This document shows, piece by piece, positions 2,219 through 20,155 of a stretch of 64,000 nt of DNA. Numbering within the stretch: the first letter of the stretch is position 1; each line of letters opens with the position of its first letter. Position numbers and translations under genes: made by a program. Source of the stretch: Tetraselmis striata (taxonomy: Eukaryota; Chlorophyta; Chlorodendrophyceae; Chlorodendrales; Chlorodendraceae); the NCBI GenBank assembly GCA_006384855.1, contig VCJN01002130.1:1-64000 (forward strand). The letters are read 5' to 3'. The notes beneath the pieces were generated by a model. That model saw nothing but the letters and a program-made list of their open reading frames with translations. It did no database searches and had not been told where the DNA came from.

Positions 2219-5200
2219 CTCTCCGGAACGCGGGCGGCGGGCGGCGGCGCGCACCCGTGGCCGTCTCCCAGATGCGCGCCTGCTGCCCGGAGAGCGTCAC
2301 GGTGGTGGCGCCGTCCGCGGCGAGCTCCACGGCGTGCACCTCCCGCGGGTGGCCGTCCAGCTCCGCGACGCAGGCGCCTGAGTTGAGGTCCCACACGCGC
2401 GCGCTCAGGTCGTAGCTGCCCGTCACCGCGTAGCGGCAGTCCTCGGACAGCGCCGCGCTCAGCACGTCCTCCGAGTGCCCGTCCAGCACGAGGGCGCAGA
2501 CGCCGGCCGCCGTGTCCCACACGCGCGCCGTCCAGTCCTGCGCCACAAGCGACAGCGGAGCCGCGTCAGACGGCTGCAGCGGCCCTCGATGCAACGAACC
2601 GCGCAGATATAAAGGGGGGGGGGGGGGGAGGGGGAAGGCGCAGTGCTTGCAATGGTCCGGCTTGGCGAGAAATTTAGGGTATCATAGGGCTTTTTAGGTT
2701 AATTTGTGAAAGGGTTCAACTGATTAGAACTTGATACATGGAATGGCATGCGACACCGGCAGCCACACCTTGCCATTCAATTGGGTTTGCTTGTCCCCCC
2801 CCCCCCCCCACCCCCGAACAAAAGTGGATCAAGCATTGGAACATTTGTGGCAAGGTGTATTGTGACGCATTTCCATTGATAATATTATTTCAACACATAG
2901 TAGCCACATAAAGATTGAGTACCAGTGACCATGTATTCCTTACTAATTACTATACAGTACACTGCGACGGTGCGGTAAGATACACTTAAAATAATAGCAA
3001 AATCTTAAATGAACATGCACTGATGTGCAGAGCTCAAATTTAGACAAAGTTATAACGGATTTATAACGGAATTGCGAACACTACACTAGCACGTCCACCC
3101 GGGGGTTTTAAATACAGGTTCTTTTAGGTGTGTCGGCGCTGCCGGTAGTTGCCGCCGCGCTGCTGGTCCTGCGTTGTCTCCGCTTGGCAGGCGGGCCGGA
3201 AACGATATGCATGCACGACCCCAGAGGGTGCGGCGGCACGTGCGCCCCTTGAACCACTGAGCCCCAAGTGACGACAGCCCGCAAGAGTGAGCGAGATGAG
3301 CGAGAAGGCGCGAGAGAGGGAGTGAGTGACTGAGCGAGAGCGGGAGGGTTGCTGTCATTCAAGTGCGGTGGCGCATCTATGCTCGCCAGCTAGCGCGGTG
3401 GGCGTCTGATGATGTCAGAGGGGGGGGGGGGGGGGGACCTTGGAGTACGTGAGCACCAGCGCCCCGTCGTGGCTCATCAGGACGCCGTTGATGCCGCCCG
3501 AGTGCACGTACGCCTGGCGGCGCGATGGTGCAGCAGCGGCAGCCCGTCAGATTGGTTCACGCCGAGGCCGACAGAAGATTAGTGATGTAAGCTTGAGGTC
3601 CGTTGGCAAGGCGTGCCAGCAGGGCCGAGAACGGGTCGATGAGGTCTCGCAATAGGGTTATAAACCCTAAAGATAAAACCTAAAACTCGAACTCAAAACC
3701 CGCAATTAAGACCCTAAAACGCAAACCATAAGACCCTGCCCCCTCGTCTGTGGCGGCGCTCACCTTGTTGCGGTCGCCGCGCTGCTGCAGCATCTTCACG
3801 CACTCGCCGCTCACCATGTCCCAGATGGCGAGGCTGCTGTCAAAGAGCACCACCGCCGCCAGCTGCGCGCGCCAGAGCAGCCATCTCTCAGCGCCTGAAC
3901 TAGGGCTTCAAACCTTAGTTCAAATAGGTTTTGTAGCCGGGCGGGGCAGGTGCTGGACAGCGAGAACAAGGGGTCGATCTTTTAGGATCTAAATTAGGGT
4001 TTAGTTTATGATTAGGGTATTGAGGTAAGGGTTGGTTTGTGTGATGGGGATGTACGGTTTATGGTTTAGGGCTAGGTTTAGGTGTGTGGTAAGGTGTATG
4101 GGGGTCGCACATGGGTTAGGGTTAGGGTGTTCACGGCATCAGGGTTTTTGCACTCCGGCATGCTGCTCTGCCTTCATCTGGCCGGCGGGCGCGCGGGCGG
4201 CATACCTTCCCGTCCCAGCCGCATGCGAAGGACTTGACGCGCGAGCCCGCCACGGCCGGCATGCAGCGGCTGGGCGCGACCCCCTCGCTGTCCGGCGCCC
4301 CCAGCCGGCCCAGGTCCCACACGCAGACCTGGCGGTCGCCCGACACGGTGACGACCCCCTCTGTACCCTGTGGGTTTTTAACGTGGCGCATCAACGTTCA
4401 CCGCCGGGCGGCACACACAGCATGTTCAGCGACAGCGCGAGCCGGCAGCTGAGGAGGTCTTAGACTGTTACATACCTGAATTTCAATAACATGTTCGAGA
4501 ATCGATCGGGTTCATGGCGTCGCAAGAACGAGGAACTGTTTTGAACCATCCACCAGGGGATTCTTTGACACATTTGTGACGTAAAAGTGGCGATGGACCA
4601 GGGCCGGAGCCCTGCGTGACCGGTTTGCCGCCTGGCTAGGCACGCGCAATCCCCCACAGACGATATCCGCGTGCCATGGCGCTATCGTCTAGCCAGTTTG
4701 GCCATCGCGTCGCTCGAACCGCGAAGCGATAGTGCACAACCGTGGGGCGCCACGACAGTCGTAATTGGCCGCGATGAAGGGACCAGGATTCGGAAATCTT
4801 CACTCGTGATGCATGTCGGGCGCCGCAGATTCTTCTGATTGAGGGAGAGGCCGAGGGAGCAGATAGCATTCCTCGGAGGGAGGAGGAGGATGGGGACCCC
4901 ACGGGGGGGGGGGGGGGGGGATTCAGCCGGGTGAGAACGCACGTTGAGCTTGGTGAGCCACTTGATGGCGGCGCTGTGGCCGCCGCTCCCCGCCAGCACG
5001 CCCTTGCAGCTGTAGTCCGAGGCGTCCCAGACGTAGGCCGCCCCGTCCTGGCCCGCCGTCACCACCTGCGTGTCCTGGCTCACCACCATCTTGGTGACGG
5101 AGCCGTTGTGCCGCACCAGGCTGCTCGTCCGCCTGTACTCGTTCACTGCGGGGGAAGGGGGGGGGCACGCGGGCGGGTCAGCTCCACCGCGTGGATGCGC

Positions 5201-16955: not shown

Positions 16956-16982
16956 ATTTCAAAGTTGAGTCTAGTTTTGCCA
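16956..16982 (-). repeat. 27-bp split repeat (B2)
   Basis: Starts ATTTCAAAGTTGAGTCTAG; matches 17261-17287 with one difference. It forms the outer 3' end of the recombinase element. Confidence 0.85.
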
Positions 16983-17074
16983 AAAAGGTCGCGCAGGCTG
17001 TTTTACACGGTCAAGAGCCGAAATTGGCAGGATGGTTTAGCGAAAGCGTGGAGGGAAAACGGAGTCAGGGGGGG

Positions 17075-17262
17075 CGCTGCGTGGAACGCAGCGAAAACTG
17101 GAAGATGGCAGGCTCAGCTGTTCTGGCTGCTTTTATGTCTACTCGTGCTGCACCCAACAAGGGCGCAACAACAGTTACTAGTTCCCGTACCACTGAGCAG
17201 CACTTGTAGCTAAAAAAGCGGTTAGGTCAAGGATGGAAACCCCATAAACTAGTTTAGATCAT
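17075..17262 (-). repeat. 188-bp direct repeat (A2) of the recombinase element
   Basis: Near-identical to 19968-20155, from CGCTGCGTGGAACGCAGCG to CTAGTTTAGATCAT. The first 17 bases form a small palindrome. It abuts the inner 27-bp repeat at 17261. Confidence 0.9.
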
Positions 17263-17340
17263 TTCAAAGTTGAGTCTGGTTTTGCCAGTCTTGAGCGAAC
17301 GTAGAGAGCGGTGGATTGACGGAGAAGGGGTAGCGCCAAG

Positions 17341-18963
17341 TCATGAAGGAGGCACTGGGAAGGCCACCGCTGCGGAGTCCTGTTGGACTTGGAAGTGGCG
17401 GAGGGGGGCGATGTGTCCAAAGAAGAACCACGCGCCAGGAGAAGGAAGAACGTTGGGGTCGATGTAGTCCAGAACGACATCAGAGTTAGTGGCCCAACCG
17501 CCTTGGTAGCGGATGTGGGACAGTGGCGCTCCGATGGCGTTTGCTGCAGAGGCTGCGCCCTTGCGTAGACTGTGTGAAGTCAAGGAAGTGCCAGCAGGGG
17601 GGGCAGCGTTGACTAGGTTGACTGCTGTAGACAACCAGTCTGACATCGTAGCCGGAGTCCAAGGTTTTGACTGCTCAGCCACATTGACAGCCCAGAAGTT
17701 GGAGGCAGCCAAGCCAACAGTAACCAGGGGGACAGACTGGACGTTGTCGATGAAGTGGTGCAAGAGACGTGCCACTCGAGGGTGCTCGGACACTGGAAGG
17801 AGAAGTACGCGCAGGTCGCCGGGTCCCCGCCGGCCAGCGCGACCCTTCTCGCGGTAGATCTGCAAGGTGATGTTGTAGGTGTCGACATGCACATCTTGCA
17901 CTCGACAGGAGACGCCAGTAAGGCCCATGGCAAAGAACAGGAAGTTGACAACCGAGGCCAAGAGGGCTCGGTAGTCGAAGTGGGACTCTGGGTAAGGAGC
18001 AGACACAATTAGCTCGGCCTTTGAGACGAAGCGGGAAGCTACATCCGCAGGCAGAGGGACACGCAAAGGGGCAGCGTCCAGTCGGCGCTGACGCAACATT
18101 AACCCACGTCTTGCTGAAGTGAGGTGTAGGCTGTCCTTGGCGATCGGGACGAGGTTGTGCAGCTCGAAGAAGGTGTTGATGGCAGACAGGTAGGGCTGCA
18201 ACGATTTAGCTGCGATGTGCCCTCGCTCCCCGATCCATGCAACGTACCGAACAACAGTAGCAGTAGTCGCTTCCAGCGGGCTGATGTTCTCGGAGTCGTG
18301 GCAGAACTCAGCGAACTGAGACCTGCCGGCGTAGCTCTTGAGGGTCTGAGCGCTGAGGGAGCTGGAGAGCAGGTCGAGCGTCCGCTGGCCTAGCTCGTCT
18401 GAGCCGAACGCGTCCTGCAGTCGAGATCGCAGTGACGCAGCCCATGGAGCGATAGCTGCGGGCTCGTCAATTACGTAAGTGCGTCGTTTTGCTGACAGAG
18501 TTCCACCGGCACGGCTACTGTTCGCAAAGTACTCGGCAGCAACGGTTAGGTTCCCGGCGGTTGGCCGGTAGTTGCTGGACGGGTTTGCAGTAGCTCCAGT
18601 ACGGGTTTGCGGGGCTAGGTTCAGGTAAGAGGGCCGCCCCGCGCGCCCTTCGCGCTCATAGCGCCTGTCACGTGCGTAACGTACACGCGCGAAACTTGGT
18701 CGTTGCGAACCGGTTGTAACACGTAGTGTAACAACCGACGAACGCAGAGATGGGGTTGTAAGAAAGGCGGATGGTTGAGCCGCCATGTGCAGGCGTGCGG
18801 ATGGTTGAGCCGCACTCGGCTGTAGCTGTAAGAAGCGCCGCACTGAGGAAGGTCTAAATGAAGTCTGTAAGGTGGGGGGGTCAGGTCCTGACACAGGGCG
18901 CTCATCCCGCCGTTGAGCTGCAAGGGTGCGTCTTGCGGCGGTCACCGAAAGGTGGCCTCGCAA
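17341..18963 (-). CDS. Tyrosine recombinase (DIRS/Ngaro/TOC-type integrase)
   Basis: Intact 540-residue ORF. The C-terminal half carries the tyrosine recombinase signature: Arg354 in VSCRVQDVHV, His464-x-x-Arg467 in SHSLRKGAAS, then GGWATNSDVV with Trp490 where many relatives have His/Trp, and Tyr500 in LDYIDP as the likely nucleophile. The core-binding region (about residues 190-300) contains KSYAGRSQFAEFC, typical of an N-terminal SAM-like DNA-binding domain. Family members cut and rejoin DNA to insert a circular or linear element copy without making a target duplication. The ORF starts 37 bp after the Gag-like ORF on the same strand. The first ~140 residues are low-complexity and the true start may lie further in. 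Confidence 0.9.
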   Translation of the reverse strand: MRGHLSVTAARRTLAAQRRDERPVSGPDPPTLQTSFRPSSVRRFLQLQPSAAQPSARLHMAAQPSAFLTTPSLRSSVVTLRVTTGSQRPSFARVRYARDRRYEREGRAGRPSYLNLAPQTRTGATANPSSNYRPTAGNLTVAAEYFANSSRAGGTLSAKRRTYVIDEPAAIAPWAASLRSRLQDAFGSDELGQRTLDLLSSSLSAQTLKSYAGRSQFAEFCHDSENISPLEATTATVVRYVAWIGERGHIAAKSLQPYLSAINTFFELHNLVPIAKDSLHLTSARRGLMLRQRRLDAAPLRVPLPADVASRFVSKAELIVSAPYPESHFDYRALLASVVNFLFFAMGLTGVSCRVQDVHVDTYNITLQIYREKGRAGRRGPGDLRVLLLPVSEHPRVARLLHHFIDNVQSVPLVTVGLAASNFWAVNVAEQSKPWTPATMSDWLSTAVNLVNAAPPAGTSLTSHSLRKGAASAANAIGAPLSHIRYQGGWATNSDVVLDYIDPNVLPSPGAWFFFGHIAPLRHFQVQQDSAAVAFPVPPS

Positions 18964-18999
18964 GGCTCCTGCAGCTCCGACGAGCCGCGCCCCACACCG

Positions 19000-19854
19000 T
19001 CACTCGTGCTCACCTTCGCGGCCACGTCCACGTCCGCCGCCCCGTCCTCGCTCACGCCCGCGACCTGCAGCTGCAGCCGCTACTCGAGAAGTAGCGGTCA
19101 CCTTGGCGCTGCTGGCAACGGTCGCCTCGAAGACACGACGCTCGTAGTCCCTCATGAGGTCCCCAAAAATCGCAGAACCCAAATGCTCCGAAGCAGGCTG
19201 AAAATGCTGAGCTCGCAGCACGTCCAGAACACCTTGGTCACCGTGCACCCGCTTGATCTCATTCAGTTTCCGCAGGAAGGCTAGACGAAAACGAAACGCC
19301 TTGTCGATGGCCTCGGCGTGATTCCGAGCTCTCGCGAGGTAGGGGGTGAAGTCCTGGTTAGTGGCGGGGACGTAAGGTAGCAGCTCGTCGAGCGCCACGA
19401 AAAGGGCGGCCATGTGGGCCCCGAAACACGACATCCACAAGTACTCCTCCTGGGCCGGCAGACGCCGGTCATCTTGCTTGAGGTACTCGTTCGTTAGGTC
19501 GGTGCTCAAAGGGAAAAGTCCAGGCACTCGGCTGACCGGTCGAACGGCCTCGTAACCTGACTCTGCTCTCTGCAGTAGCTCTGGCACCGCGAGGTAATCA
19601 TCCTCGTCACTCACGGATTTTGCTCCGACACGGCCGCTCTGGGCTAGCTCTAGCAAGTCGGGGCGCTCTGCGGCTCCCCCGCTGCCTGTCGGCTGTCCCG
19701 CGAAGTGCTGCCCTGAGCCGGAGCCATGTGCCCCTTCTCCATCAACAACACGCTCACGAGCCGTCAATTGAGCTACAGCTGTAGCCAATGCACGCACATC
19801 TGCTTGCAACGACTTGAGCGTCGGCTCAACGACGGGTTCTTCTCCATCTGACAT
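19000..19854 (-). CDS. Gag-like protein of the recombinase element
   Basis: Chosen start is the ATG at 19854 (MSDGEEPVVEP); an upstream ATG at 19887 is in frame. The 284-residue product has a coiled, acidic N-terminus, a helical middle (about residues 130-240, with LRKLNEIKRVHGDQ), and an Arg/Gly-rich tail (GRGRERGRGGGRGRG) that would bind nucleic acid. No zinc knuckle and no enzymatic motif is seen. Position before the recombinase and the RGG tail fit the Gag-like first ORF of DIRS-order elements; the assignment rests on position and composition. Confidence 0.65.
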   Translation of the reverse strand: MSDGEEPVVEPTLKSLQADVRALATAVAQLTARERVVDGEGAHGSGSGQHFAGQPTGSGGAAERPDLLELAQSGRVGAKSVSDEDDYLAVPELLQRAESGYEAVRPVSRVPGLFPLSTDLTNEYLKQDDRRLPAQEEYLWMSCFGAHMAALFVALDELLPYVPATNQDFTPYLARARNHAEAIDKAFRFRLAFLRKLNEIKRVHGDQGVLDVLRAQHFQPASEHLGSAIFGDLMRDYERRVFEATVASSAKVTATSRVAAAAAGRGRERGRGGGRGRGREGEHE

Positions 19855-19967
19855 AGTAACGCACGGACGTACGGACGAGAATATCACACTCGGATGGCGA
19901 GCCGGGTGTGGTCTTGAACAACCTGGGGTGACCTTGCTCGCAACGGGTTACGAGACAGTTTTTACAT

Positions 19968-20155
19968 CGCTGCGTGGAACGCAGCGAAAACTGGAAGATT
20001 GCAGGCTCAGCTGTTCTGGCTGCTTTTATGTCTACTCGTGCTGCACCCAACAAGGGCGCAACAACAGTTTCTAGTTCCCGTACCACTGAGCAGCACTTGT
20101 AGCTAAAAAAGCGGTTAGGTCAAGGATGGAAACCCCATAAACTAGTTTAGATCAT
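19968..20155 (-). repeat. 188-bp direct repeat (A1) of the recombinase element
   Basis: Outer 5' copy of the repeat at 17075-17262, same length, about two differences. It ends at TAGATCAT next to AATCACGG of the flank. Confidence 0.9.

What the first reader, a model, noticed from the sequence alone, without database searches (positions are those of the whole stretch)
16956..20155. Tyrosine-recombinase element with perfect split direct repeats but no reverse transcriptase
A 188-bp and a 27-bp repeat in A1...B1-A2-B2 arrangement bracket only a Gag-like and an intact recombinase ORF. Known DIRS/Ngaro elements also encode RT and RNase H. This could be a distinct minimal lineage, moving as DNA by recombination or borrowing RT in trans.
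Basis: partly seen in the sequence, partly recalled or inferred. Interest (0 to 1): 0.8.

Follow-up and report, generated by a model that had tools for sequence, protein, structure and literature searches.

The report
RT-less tyrosine-recombinase retroelement family in alga
A green alga carries hundreds of copies of a small jumping element that keeps a coat-like protein and its own DNA-integrating enzyme but has no copying enzyme, so it probably borrows one from another element.

Summary
Window 16956-20155 is a 3200-bp element whose coding (minus) strand reads A1(188)-Gag-like ORF-tyrosine recombinase (YR) ORF-B1(27)-A2(188)-B2(27). The repeats are 98.9% and 96.3% identical, not perfect. It is no one-off deletion product: of 20 further loci fetched from the host assembly (a green alga, most likely Tetraselmis striata), 18 hold a complete copy of the same RT-less design. 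Exact patterns occur 715 times (B1-A2 junction) and 1059 times (YR 3' end) in the assembly. Wherever both a Gag and a YR 20-mer were seen, they lay at most 533 bp apart (56 of 100 YR places), leaving no room for RT. YR and Gag show purifying selection (pN/pS 0.22 and 0.16; wrong frames above 1). Both 188-bp repeats of a copy share its private mutations, as if rebuilt at each transposition. An empty site shows integration at AT. The genome also holds PAT/DIRS-type elements with RT, RNase H and Dam and a different YR. Best explanation: a Gag+YR lineage copied through RNA by a borrowed RT and integrated by its own YR. RT source and circles are inferred. A rare RT-bearing master copy is not excluded. 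The window's own YR may be dead.

The parts
16956..20155 (-). whole element, 3200 bp, coding strand minus
   Evidence: repeats; ends by comparison with 18 further complete copies and their flanks
19968..20155 (-). A1, 188-bp repeat at the 5' end of the coding strand
19003..19854 (-). Gag-like ORF, 284 aa, RG-rich C-terminal tail, no zinc knuckle found
   Evidence: pN/pS 0.157 over 12 copies, wrong frames 1.4 and 2.3
19000..19002 (-). TGA between Gag and YR, followed by C; present in 19 of 19 aligned copies; same frame on both sides in the 7 copies with both ORFs open
17344..18999 (-). tyrosine recombinase ORF, 552 codons (first Met at 18786); K385, H476-x-x-R479, W502, Y512; Met358 in place of the predicted Box I Arg
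   Evidence: pN/pS 0.218 over 11 copies (alignment columns 146 to end), wrong frames 1.2 and 1.6
17261..17287 (-). B1, 27-bp repeat
17257..17269 (+). internal B1-A2 (circle-type) junction GATC-AT-TTCAAAG
   Evidence: a 23-bp version occurs 715 times in the assembly
17075..17262 (-). A2, 188-bp repeat
16983..17074 (-). unique 92-bp spacer between A2 and B2
16956..16982 (-). B2, 27-bp repeat at the 3' end of the coding strand

Best explanation
It is one copy of a large, recently active family of split-direct-repeat tyrosine-recombinase elements that encode only a Gag-like protein and a YR. Most likely each new copy is made as follows. (1) The element is transcribed from A1 through to the A2/B2 region (inferred). 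(2) Gag, and a Gag-YR fusion made by UGA readthrough or splicing, is translated; the Gag-like protein packages the RNA (inferred). (3) An RT/RNase H supplied in trans, possibly by the genome's PAT/DIRS elements, makes cDNA, and the internal B1-A2 copy serves as template to rebuild both ends, so that A1 and A2 become identical again (the rebuilding is supported by shared private mutations; the RT and its source are inferred). (4) The product closes into a circle with the junction GATC-AT-TTCAAAG (inferred). (5) The element's own YR integrates the circle at an AT in the target with no other target duplication (ends and one empty site shown; catalysis inferred).
For: RT-less design in 18 of 20 fetched loci and in L066. 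Pattern spacings on contigs C2-C317: gag-YR 374-533 bp in 56 of 56 measurable pairs (44 of 100 YR places had no gag 20-mer within 12 kb), junction-gag 1737-1900 bp in 50 of 50 (29 of 79 junctions without), junction-YR 1129-1382 bp in 60 of 61 (18 of 79 without). Exact counts 715, 554, 942 and 1059. Coding selection with wrong-frame control. A1/A2 concerted evolution in 18 copies: mean 1.28 differences within a copy against 4.94 between copies, 0 of 10,000 random pairings as low; 8 private column changes (five copies) sit in both repeats of their copy; 6 of 7 multi-copy variants are in both repeats of every holder; 7 of 18 copies have no difference. AT at the ends and an unoccupied copy of the host repeat that L021 is inserted into. 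RT-RH-Dam-YR elements exist in the genome.
Against: No transcript, circle or transposition was observed. The YR of the RT-bearing elements is not detectably related (phmmer best E 0.91; hhalign probability 0.6%, shallow alignment), and the roughly 180-210 bp seen after it shows no similarity to this element, so no shared ends tie the two. Ty3-type RTs are also present and could be the source. 21 private repeat changes are in one repeat only, as expected after insertion. Gag identity is unproven. Only the first 100 places per pattern were visible: 79 of 715 junctions were used for spacing. Four junctions without a YR or gag signature in view (C210:122745, C219:9588, C292:46414, C301:27147) were not read.
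Confidence: 0.6

Rival explanations
1. High-copy non-autonomous derivative of a still-existing autonomous element: a rare master copy with the same ends, Gag, RT-RH and YR drives the RT-less copies.
For: A common pattern in transposons (recalled). Spacing was checked for only 79 of 715 junctions. Four junctions without a YR or gag signature in view were not read (for C292:46414 and C301:27147 the YR-3' list did not reach that far).
Against: No RT-bearing copy among 18 complete fetched copies; 0 of 56 measurable gag-YR pairs with room for RT. Only 1 of the 120 listed proteins (of 354 hits) matching the YR carries an RT domain, and that RT reads as Ty3-type, like the Ty3 element nested inside copy L033. 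Of 10 PAT/DIRS-type RT places on contigs C1-C317, five lie 9.2 kb or more from the nearest listed junction or YR place and five are on contigs with none. Selection on YR and Gag would be unexpected if a master supplied them.
Confidence: 0.25
2. DNA-only YR transposon (Crypton-like): the YR excises a circle at the two ATs and re-integrates it; copies multiply through replication timing or circle replication; no RT is involved.
For: Only a YR and one other protein are encoded; ends are AT-bounded without further target duplication; Cryptons are a precedent for RT-less YR elements (PMC3212892, passages).
Against: A DNA circle has no obvious need of an internal B1-A2 copy, and the two repeats should diverge independently; instead they share private mutations, though gene conversion could also do that. 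A Gag-like ORF under strong selection has no known role in Cryptons. Cryptons lack long repeats (PMC3212892, passages).
Confidence: 0.12
3. Dead relics: RT-less debris amplified by segmental duplication or assembly artefact.
For: Many copies carry frameshifts or stops: both ORFs are open in one frame in only 7 of 19 copies.
Against: 20 distinct left-end flanks and 27 distinct right-end flanks, an empty site, no A1/A2 difference in 7 of 18 copies, and purifying selection.
Confidence: 0.03

Closest known systems
PAT-like elements (Pat1, TOC, Kangaroo) of the DIRS order
   Same: YR, split direct repeats, Gag without zinc finger as in TOC and Kangaroo, green-algal hosts (passages of PMC4157794 and PMC3266345); no target-site duplication (recalled)
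   Different: No RT, no RNase H, no Dam-type methyltransferase; 3.2 kb; the PAT/DIRS elements of this same genome have a YR that is not detectably related
Ngaro and VIPER elements
   Same: A1-[ORFs]-B1-A2-B2 order with the internal repeats after YR, no methyltransferase (passages of PMC8547959, PMC6681497, PMC4157794)
   Different: No RT/RNase H ORF between Gag and YR
Crypton DNA transposons
   Same: YR as the main enzyme, no RT
   Different: Cryptons have no long repeats (passages of PMC3212892) and no Gag (recalled)
SIRE, the non-autonomous form of VIPER
   Same: RT-less derivative with YR-element ends (passages of PMC6681497)
   Different: SIRE corresponds to the A2-B2 region only; here Gag and YR are kept and selected
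TR-GAG / BARE-2-type non-autonomous LTR retrotransposons
   Same: Outsource RT; TR-GAG keeps Gag (recalled; only listings and abstract starts seen)
   Different: LTR elements; I recall none that carries its own integrating enzyme without RT

Membership tests
PAT/Ngaro-type YR retrotransposon | split direct repeats in A1-ORFs-B1-A2-B2 order | tested here: met
   kept in 18 further complete copies (A1 of L022 is split by a 479-bp insertion)
PAT/Ngaro-type YR retrotransposon | tyrosine recombinase ORF | tested here: met
   PF00589 in 23 of 24 and PF02899 in 22 of 24 members at E<=0.01; K, HxxR, W, Y conserved; window copy itself below Pfam cut-offs
PAT/Ngaro-type YR retrotransposon | reverse transcriptase and RNase H | tested here: not met
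   no match in the element's two proteins; no room between Gag and YR in 56 of 56 measurable pairs; complete copies have the same 3.2-kb layout (18 of 20 loci)
PAT/Ngaro-type YR retrotransposon | methyltransferase domain (DIRS/PAT only) | tested here: not met
   no Dam match in the element, while Dam is found in the genome's PAT/DIRS elements
PAT/Ngaro-type YR retrotransposon | Gag protein | tested here: inconclusive
   no Pfam match in the window protein apart from EBNA2_Core at E 0.27; low-confidence model, pLDDT 44.7; strong coding selection
PAT/Ngaro-type YR retrotransposon | insertion without target-site duplication beyond the crossover bases | tested here: met
   AT-bounded ends; empty site in L037's flank against L021; L028 differs by one extra AT
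PAT/Ngaro-type YR retrotransposon | RNA intermediate and circular cDNA | not testable with these tools
   only indirect: concerted A1/A2 evolution
Crypton | no long direct repeats; at most short terminal repeats | tested here: not met
   188-bp and 27-bp split repeats
Crypton | YR without RT | tested here: met

The most novel reading that the evidence does not exclude
The lineage uses no reverse transcriptase at all: it is a replicative DNA-circle YR transposon in which a Gag-like protein has a new role and circle or conversion events keep the split repeats identical. A less extreme reading, which I think likelier, is a lineage that has permanently outsourced RT while continuing to evolve its own Gag and, by UGA readthrough, a Gag-YR fusion.
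Probability: 0.12. Interest if true: 0.85.

Novelty: new variant of a known kind. Interest (0 to 1): 0.6.

Why it matters
RT is taken as a defining part of YR retrotransposons. A family of hundreds of copies that keeps and selects a Gag-like protein and its own integrating enzyme but not RT would show that the copying and integrating halves of the cycle can be separated. That makes the incompletely proven DIRS-type replication model testable: which RT copies it, and what the internal A2/B1 copy is for. It also bears on the modular-origin idea that YR retrotransposons are Crypton-like integrators joined to a separate RT (passages of PMC6681497).

Tried and rejected
RT between the ORFs: not found. 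The predicted protein P0079 (YR+RVT_1) looked like a counter-example, but its RT reads as Ty3-type and resembles the Ty3/Gypsy element nested in copy L033, so I take it as a fused gene model. A second class of copies seemed to lack gag (44 of 100 YR places had no gag 20-mer within 12 kb); two such places were read and both (L066, L067) have the usual gag without the exact 20-mer. The other 42 were not read. Other YRs in the genome by PF00589 (7 matches, 150 of 1091 candidates scored): four (L039-L042) lie in bacterial-looking stretches, three (L043-L045) are older members of this family. Profile comparison of this YR with a XerC-like protein and with the PAT/DIRS YRs gave no significance (shallow alignment, Neff 1.26). 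Structure models of Gag and YR were too poor to search with (pLDDT 44.7 and 35.6), so no fold search was made. The predicted RNA fold around the TGA is not unusual (z -0.19). No confirmed relative in viral contigs (records of the host itself may be left out there). No Rfam match in the window at gathering scores.

Gene models in EukProt join Gag and YR in ways that avoid the TGA, as if by introns (P0001, P0002, P0015 and others). I could not tell splicing from readthrough. The 71 codons between TGA and the first Met show in-frame constraint (pN/pS 0.33 against 1.8 and 0.8 in the other frames; 11 copies, alignment columns 1-100), which supports translation in that frame.
Full report
What is there. 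On the minus strand the element reads A1 (20155-19968), Gag-like ORF (19854-19003), TGA (19002-19000), YR ORF (18999-17344), B1 (17287-17261), A2 (17262-17075), a 92-bp spacer, and B2 (16982-16956). The repeats differ at 2 of 188 and 1 of 27 positions. No RT, RNase H, Dam or DDE-integrase family matched the two proteins (Pfam, E up to 1).

Host. The window lies in a 224-Mb assembly of 2903 contigs. Its best protein matches, up to 98% over the whole scored region, are gene models labelled Tetstr1, which I read as Tetraselmis striata; the assembly itself is unnamed. Some contigs look bacterial (judged by eye).

It is a family. A 188-bp query from the left end returned 41 places, 40 of 1889 candidates being scored. 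I fetched 20 loci chosen from those: 18 hold a complete copy covering 3176-3200 of 3200 bp, 92-98% identical, L022 with a 479-bp insertion in A1. L032 matches for 1245 bp only, and L033 gives way to a Ty3/Gypsy element after 494 bp. Two further loci chosen later gave one complete copy and one fetched only in part. Exact counts in the whole assembly: 715 B1-A2 junctions, 554 gag-3' 20-mers, 942 YR-5' 20-mers, 1059 YR-3' 20-mers, reversed-pattern controls 0. Each listing shows only the first 100 places.

No RT seen in between. On contigs C2-C317, 61 of 79 junctions have a YR-5' 20-mer within 12 kb, 60 of them at 1129-1382 bp and one at 9971 bp; 50 of 79 have a gag-3' 20-mer, all at 1737-1900 bp; 56 of 100 YR places have a gag 20-mer, all at 374-533 bp. 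Of 58 junctions on contigs C2-C227, 54 have the YR-3' 20-mer at 99-122 bp. Junctions C210:122745 and C219:9588 had none of these signatures; C292:46414 and C301:27147 had no YR-5' or gag 20-mer and lie beyond the YR-3' list. None of the four was read. A missing 20-mer need not mean a missing ORF: the two places read for that reason had gag in place.

Selection. Over 11 copies with the standard YR frame, pN/pS is 0.218 (alignment columns 146 to end), against 1.2 and 1.6 in the other two frames. Over 12 copies with a full-length Gag frame (L026, frameshifted near its end, dropped) it is 0.157, against 1.4 and 2.3; Gag columns 101-200 give 0.052. Earlier runs gave 0.196 with 15 YR rows (columns 141 to end) and 0.237 with 13 Gag rows including L026. 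Pairs are not independent, so these are descriptive. Both ORFs are open in one frame in 7 of 19 copies; the YR frame is open over at least 552 codons in 12 of 19.

TGA between Gag and YR. It is present in 19 of 19 aligned copies, always followed by C, with the same frame on both sides in the 7 copies with both ORFs open. The 71 codons before the first Met of YR have pN/pS 0.33 in frame against 1.8 and 0.8. That Met is Val in L024. This suggests a Gag-YR fusion by readthrough or splicing. It is a side finding and unproven.

How it copies. In 18 copies (L022 dropped because its A1 is interrupted; the outermost 3 alignment columns left out), the two 188-bp repeats of one copy differ on average at 1.28 positions, against 4.94 between repeats of different copies; 0 of 10,000 random pairings were as low. 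Eight private column changes, from five copies, are in both repeats of that copy; 21 private changes are in one repeat only, as expected for mutations after insertion. Of seven variants shared by several copies, six are in both repeats of every holder and one (L026, L035) is in one repeat each. Both repeats therefore appear to come from one template at each round. This is what the proposed, not fully proven DIRS-1 model predicts, in which internal sequence rebuilds the ends during cDNA synthesis and a circle is integrated (passages of PMC5633606; its extension to split direct repeats is recalled). Gene conversion is a weaker alternative.

How it integrates. All 20 distinct left ends read AT-TTCAAAG, but these loci were chosen for a match there: 12 of the 41 places match only from base 2 on, so the outermost A is not universal. 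Of the 29 right-end rows, two (L033, L044) are altered internal junctions; the other 27 read GATC-A, with T next in 17, A in 6 and G in 4. L037's left flank contains an unoccupied copy of a host repeat that L021 splits at AT; L028 splits the same place with one extra AT. The window copy has Met at the position of the predicted Box I Arg, so its own YR may be dead; 14 of 14 other rows have Arg, and in the wider alignment 20 of 24 do, with Met 2, Gly 1, Lys 1. The motif assignment of Box I is from recalled YR knowledge.

Possible helper. A Dam-domain search (151 matches, 150 of 777 candidates scored) led to an RT-RNase H-Dam ORF followed by a further ORF in L046-L053 and L055. I call that ORF a YR from a weak SAM-domain match (E 0.016, below cut-off) and an H-x-x-R, GHW, Y pattern seen by eye. 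A search with the RT gave 110 matching stretches, 86 of 945 candidates scored; nine places are 94% identical or more, the rest more diverged and mostly broken. Their YR is not detectably related to the family's, and the roughly 180-210 bp seen after it show no likeness to this element. Of 10 such RT places on contigs C1-C317, five lie 9.2 kb or more from the nearest listed junction or YR-5' place and five are on contigs with none. Helper identity is therefore open.

Comparison. The structure matches Ngaro, VIPER and PAT elements in repeat order and in having a YR, but the RT/RNase H test is not met, so I do not file it as a full member. I think it works like them. Cryptons lack the repeats (PMC3212892, passages). 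SIRE, a non-autonomous VIPER, keeps only the A2-B2 region (PMC6681497, passages). Ten full-text searches of a library of openly licensed papers (listings seen, capped at 20 papers; two searches were about the host genome) and passages of ten papers (PMC4157794, PMC6681497, PMC3266345, PMC3212892, PMC5633606, PMC12477816, PMC8226300, PMC3783388, PMC3537659, PMC8547959) showed me no report of an RT-less Gag+YR family with split repeats. I did not see the review by Poulter and Butler 2015.

Verdict. Real, abundant, recently active by the near-identity of its repeats, and a new variant of a known kind. The strongest open point is whether a rare RT-bearing master exists.

Noticed in passing
L033:1596-7099 (host contig C1127): A Ty3/Gypsy-type element with capsid, protease, RT, RNase H and integrase matches has a separate ORF with a Dam-like match (just below cut-off) and a NUDIX domain between gag and pol; it lies inside a copy of the family.
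   Followed up: partly
L046-L053, L055 and the places: PAT/DIRS-type elements (RT-RNase H-Dam with an overlapping YR-like ORF) exist in the host; that ORF has a weak C1-type zinc region match near its start. L054, L056 and L058 match Dam but not this RT.
   Followed up: partly
host contigs C1804, C2009, C396 (L039-L042): Stretches that look bacterial (XerC-like and phage-type integrases beside bacterial-looking genes), perhaps associated bacteria in the assembly.
   Followed up: no
window 19968-19986 and 17075-17093: Each 188-bp repeat ends in a short hairpin CGCTGCGTTCCACGCAGCG on the coding strand, a possible RNA signal.
   Followed up: no
window 18933-18963 (coding-strand 1193-1223): 31 bp about 37 bp after the Gag stop are identical in all 19 aligned copies; a GTGAGC splice-donor-like site just before the TGA is in a 20-mer shared by 18 of 19 copies.
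   Followed up: partly
L021, L028, L026, L037 flanks: A dispersed host repeat (GGTGATTTCCGATATCGCCTTCTGCTGC) is hit at or next to the same position by several copies, hinting at a preferred target.
   Followed up: partly
L024:4015-6916: A second relative of the element, about 86% identical, lies directly beside a young copy.
   Followed up: no
proteins P0004 and P0158: A JGI metagenome source (longest contig 5779 bp for both) encodes a YR (89%) and a Gag-like protein (97%) of this family, so the family is not confined to the one assembly.
   Followed up: no
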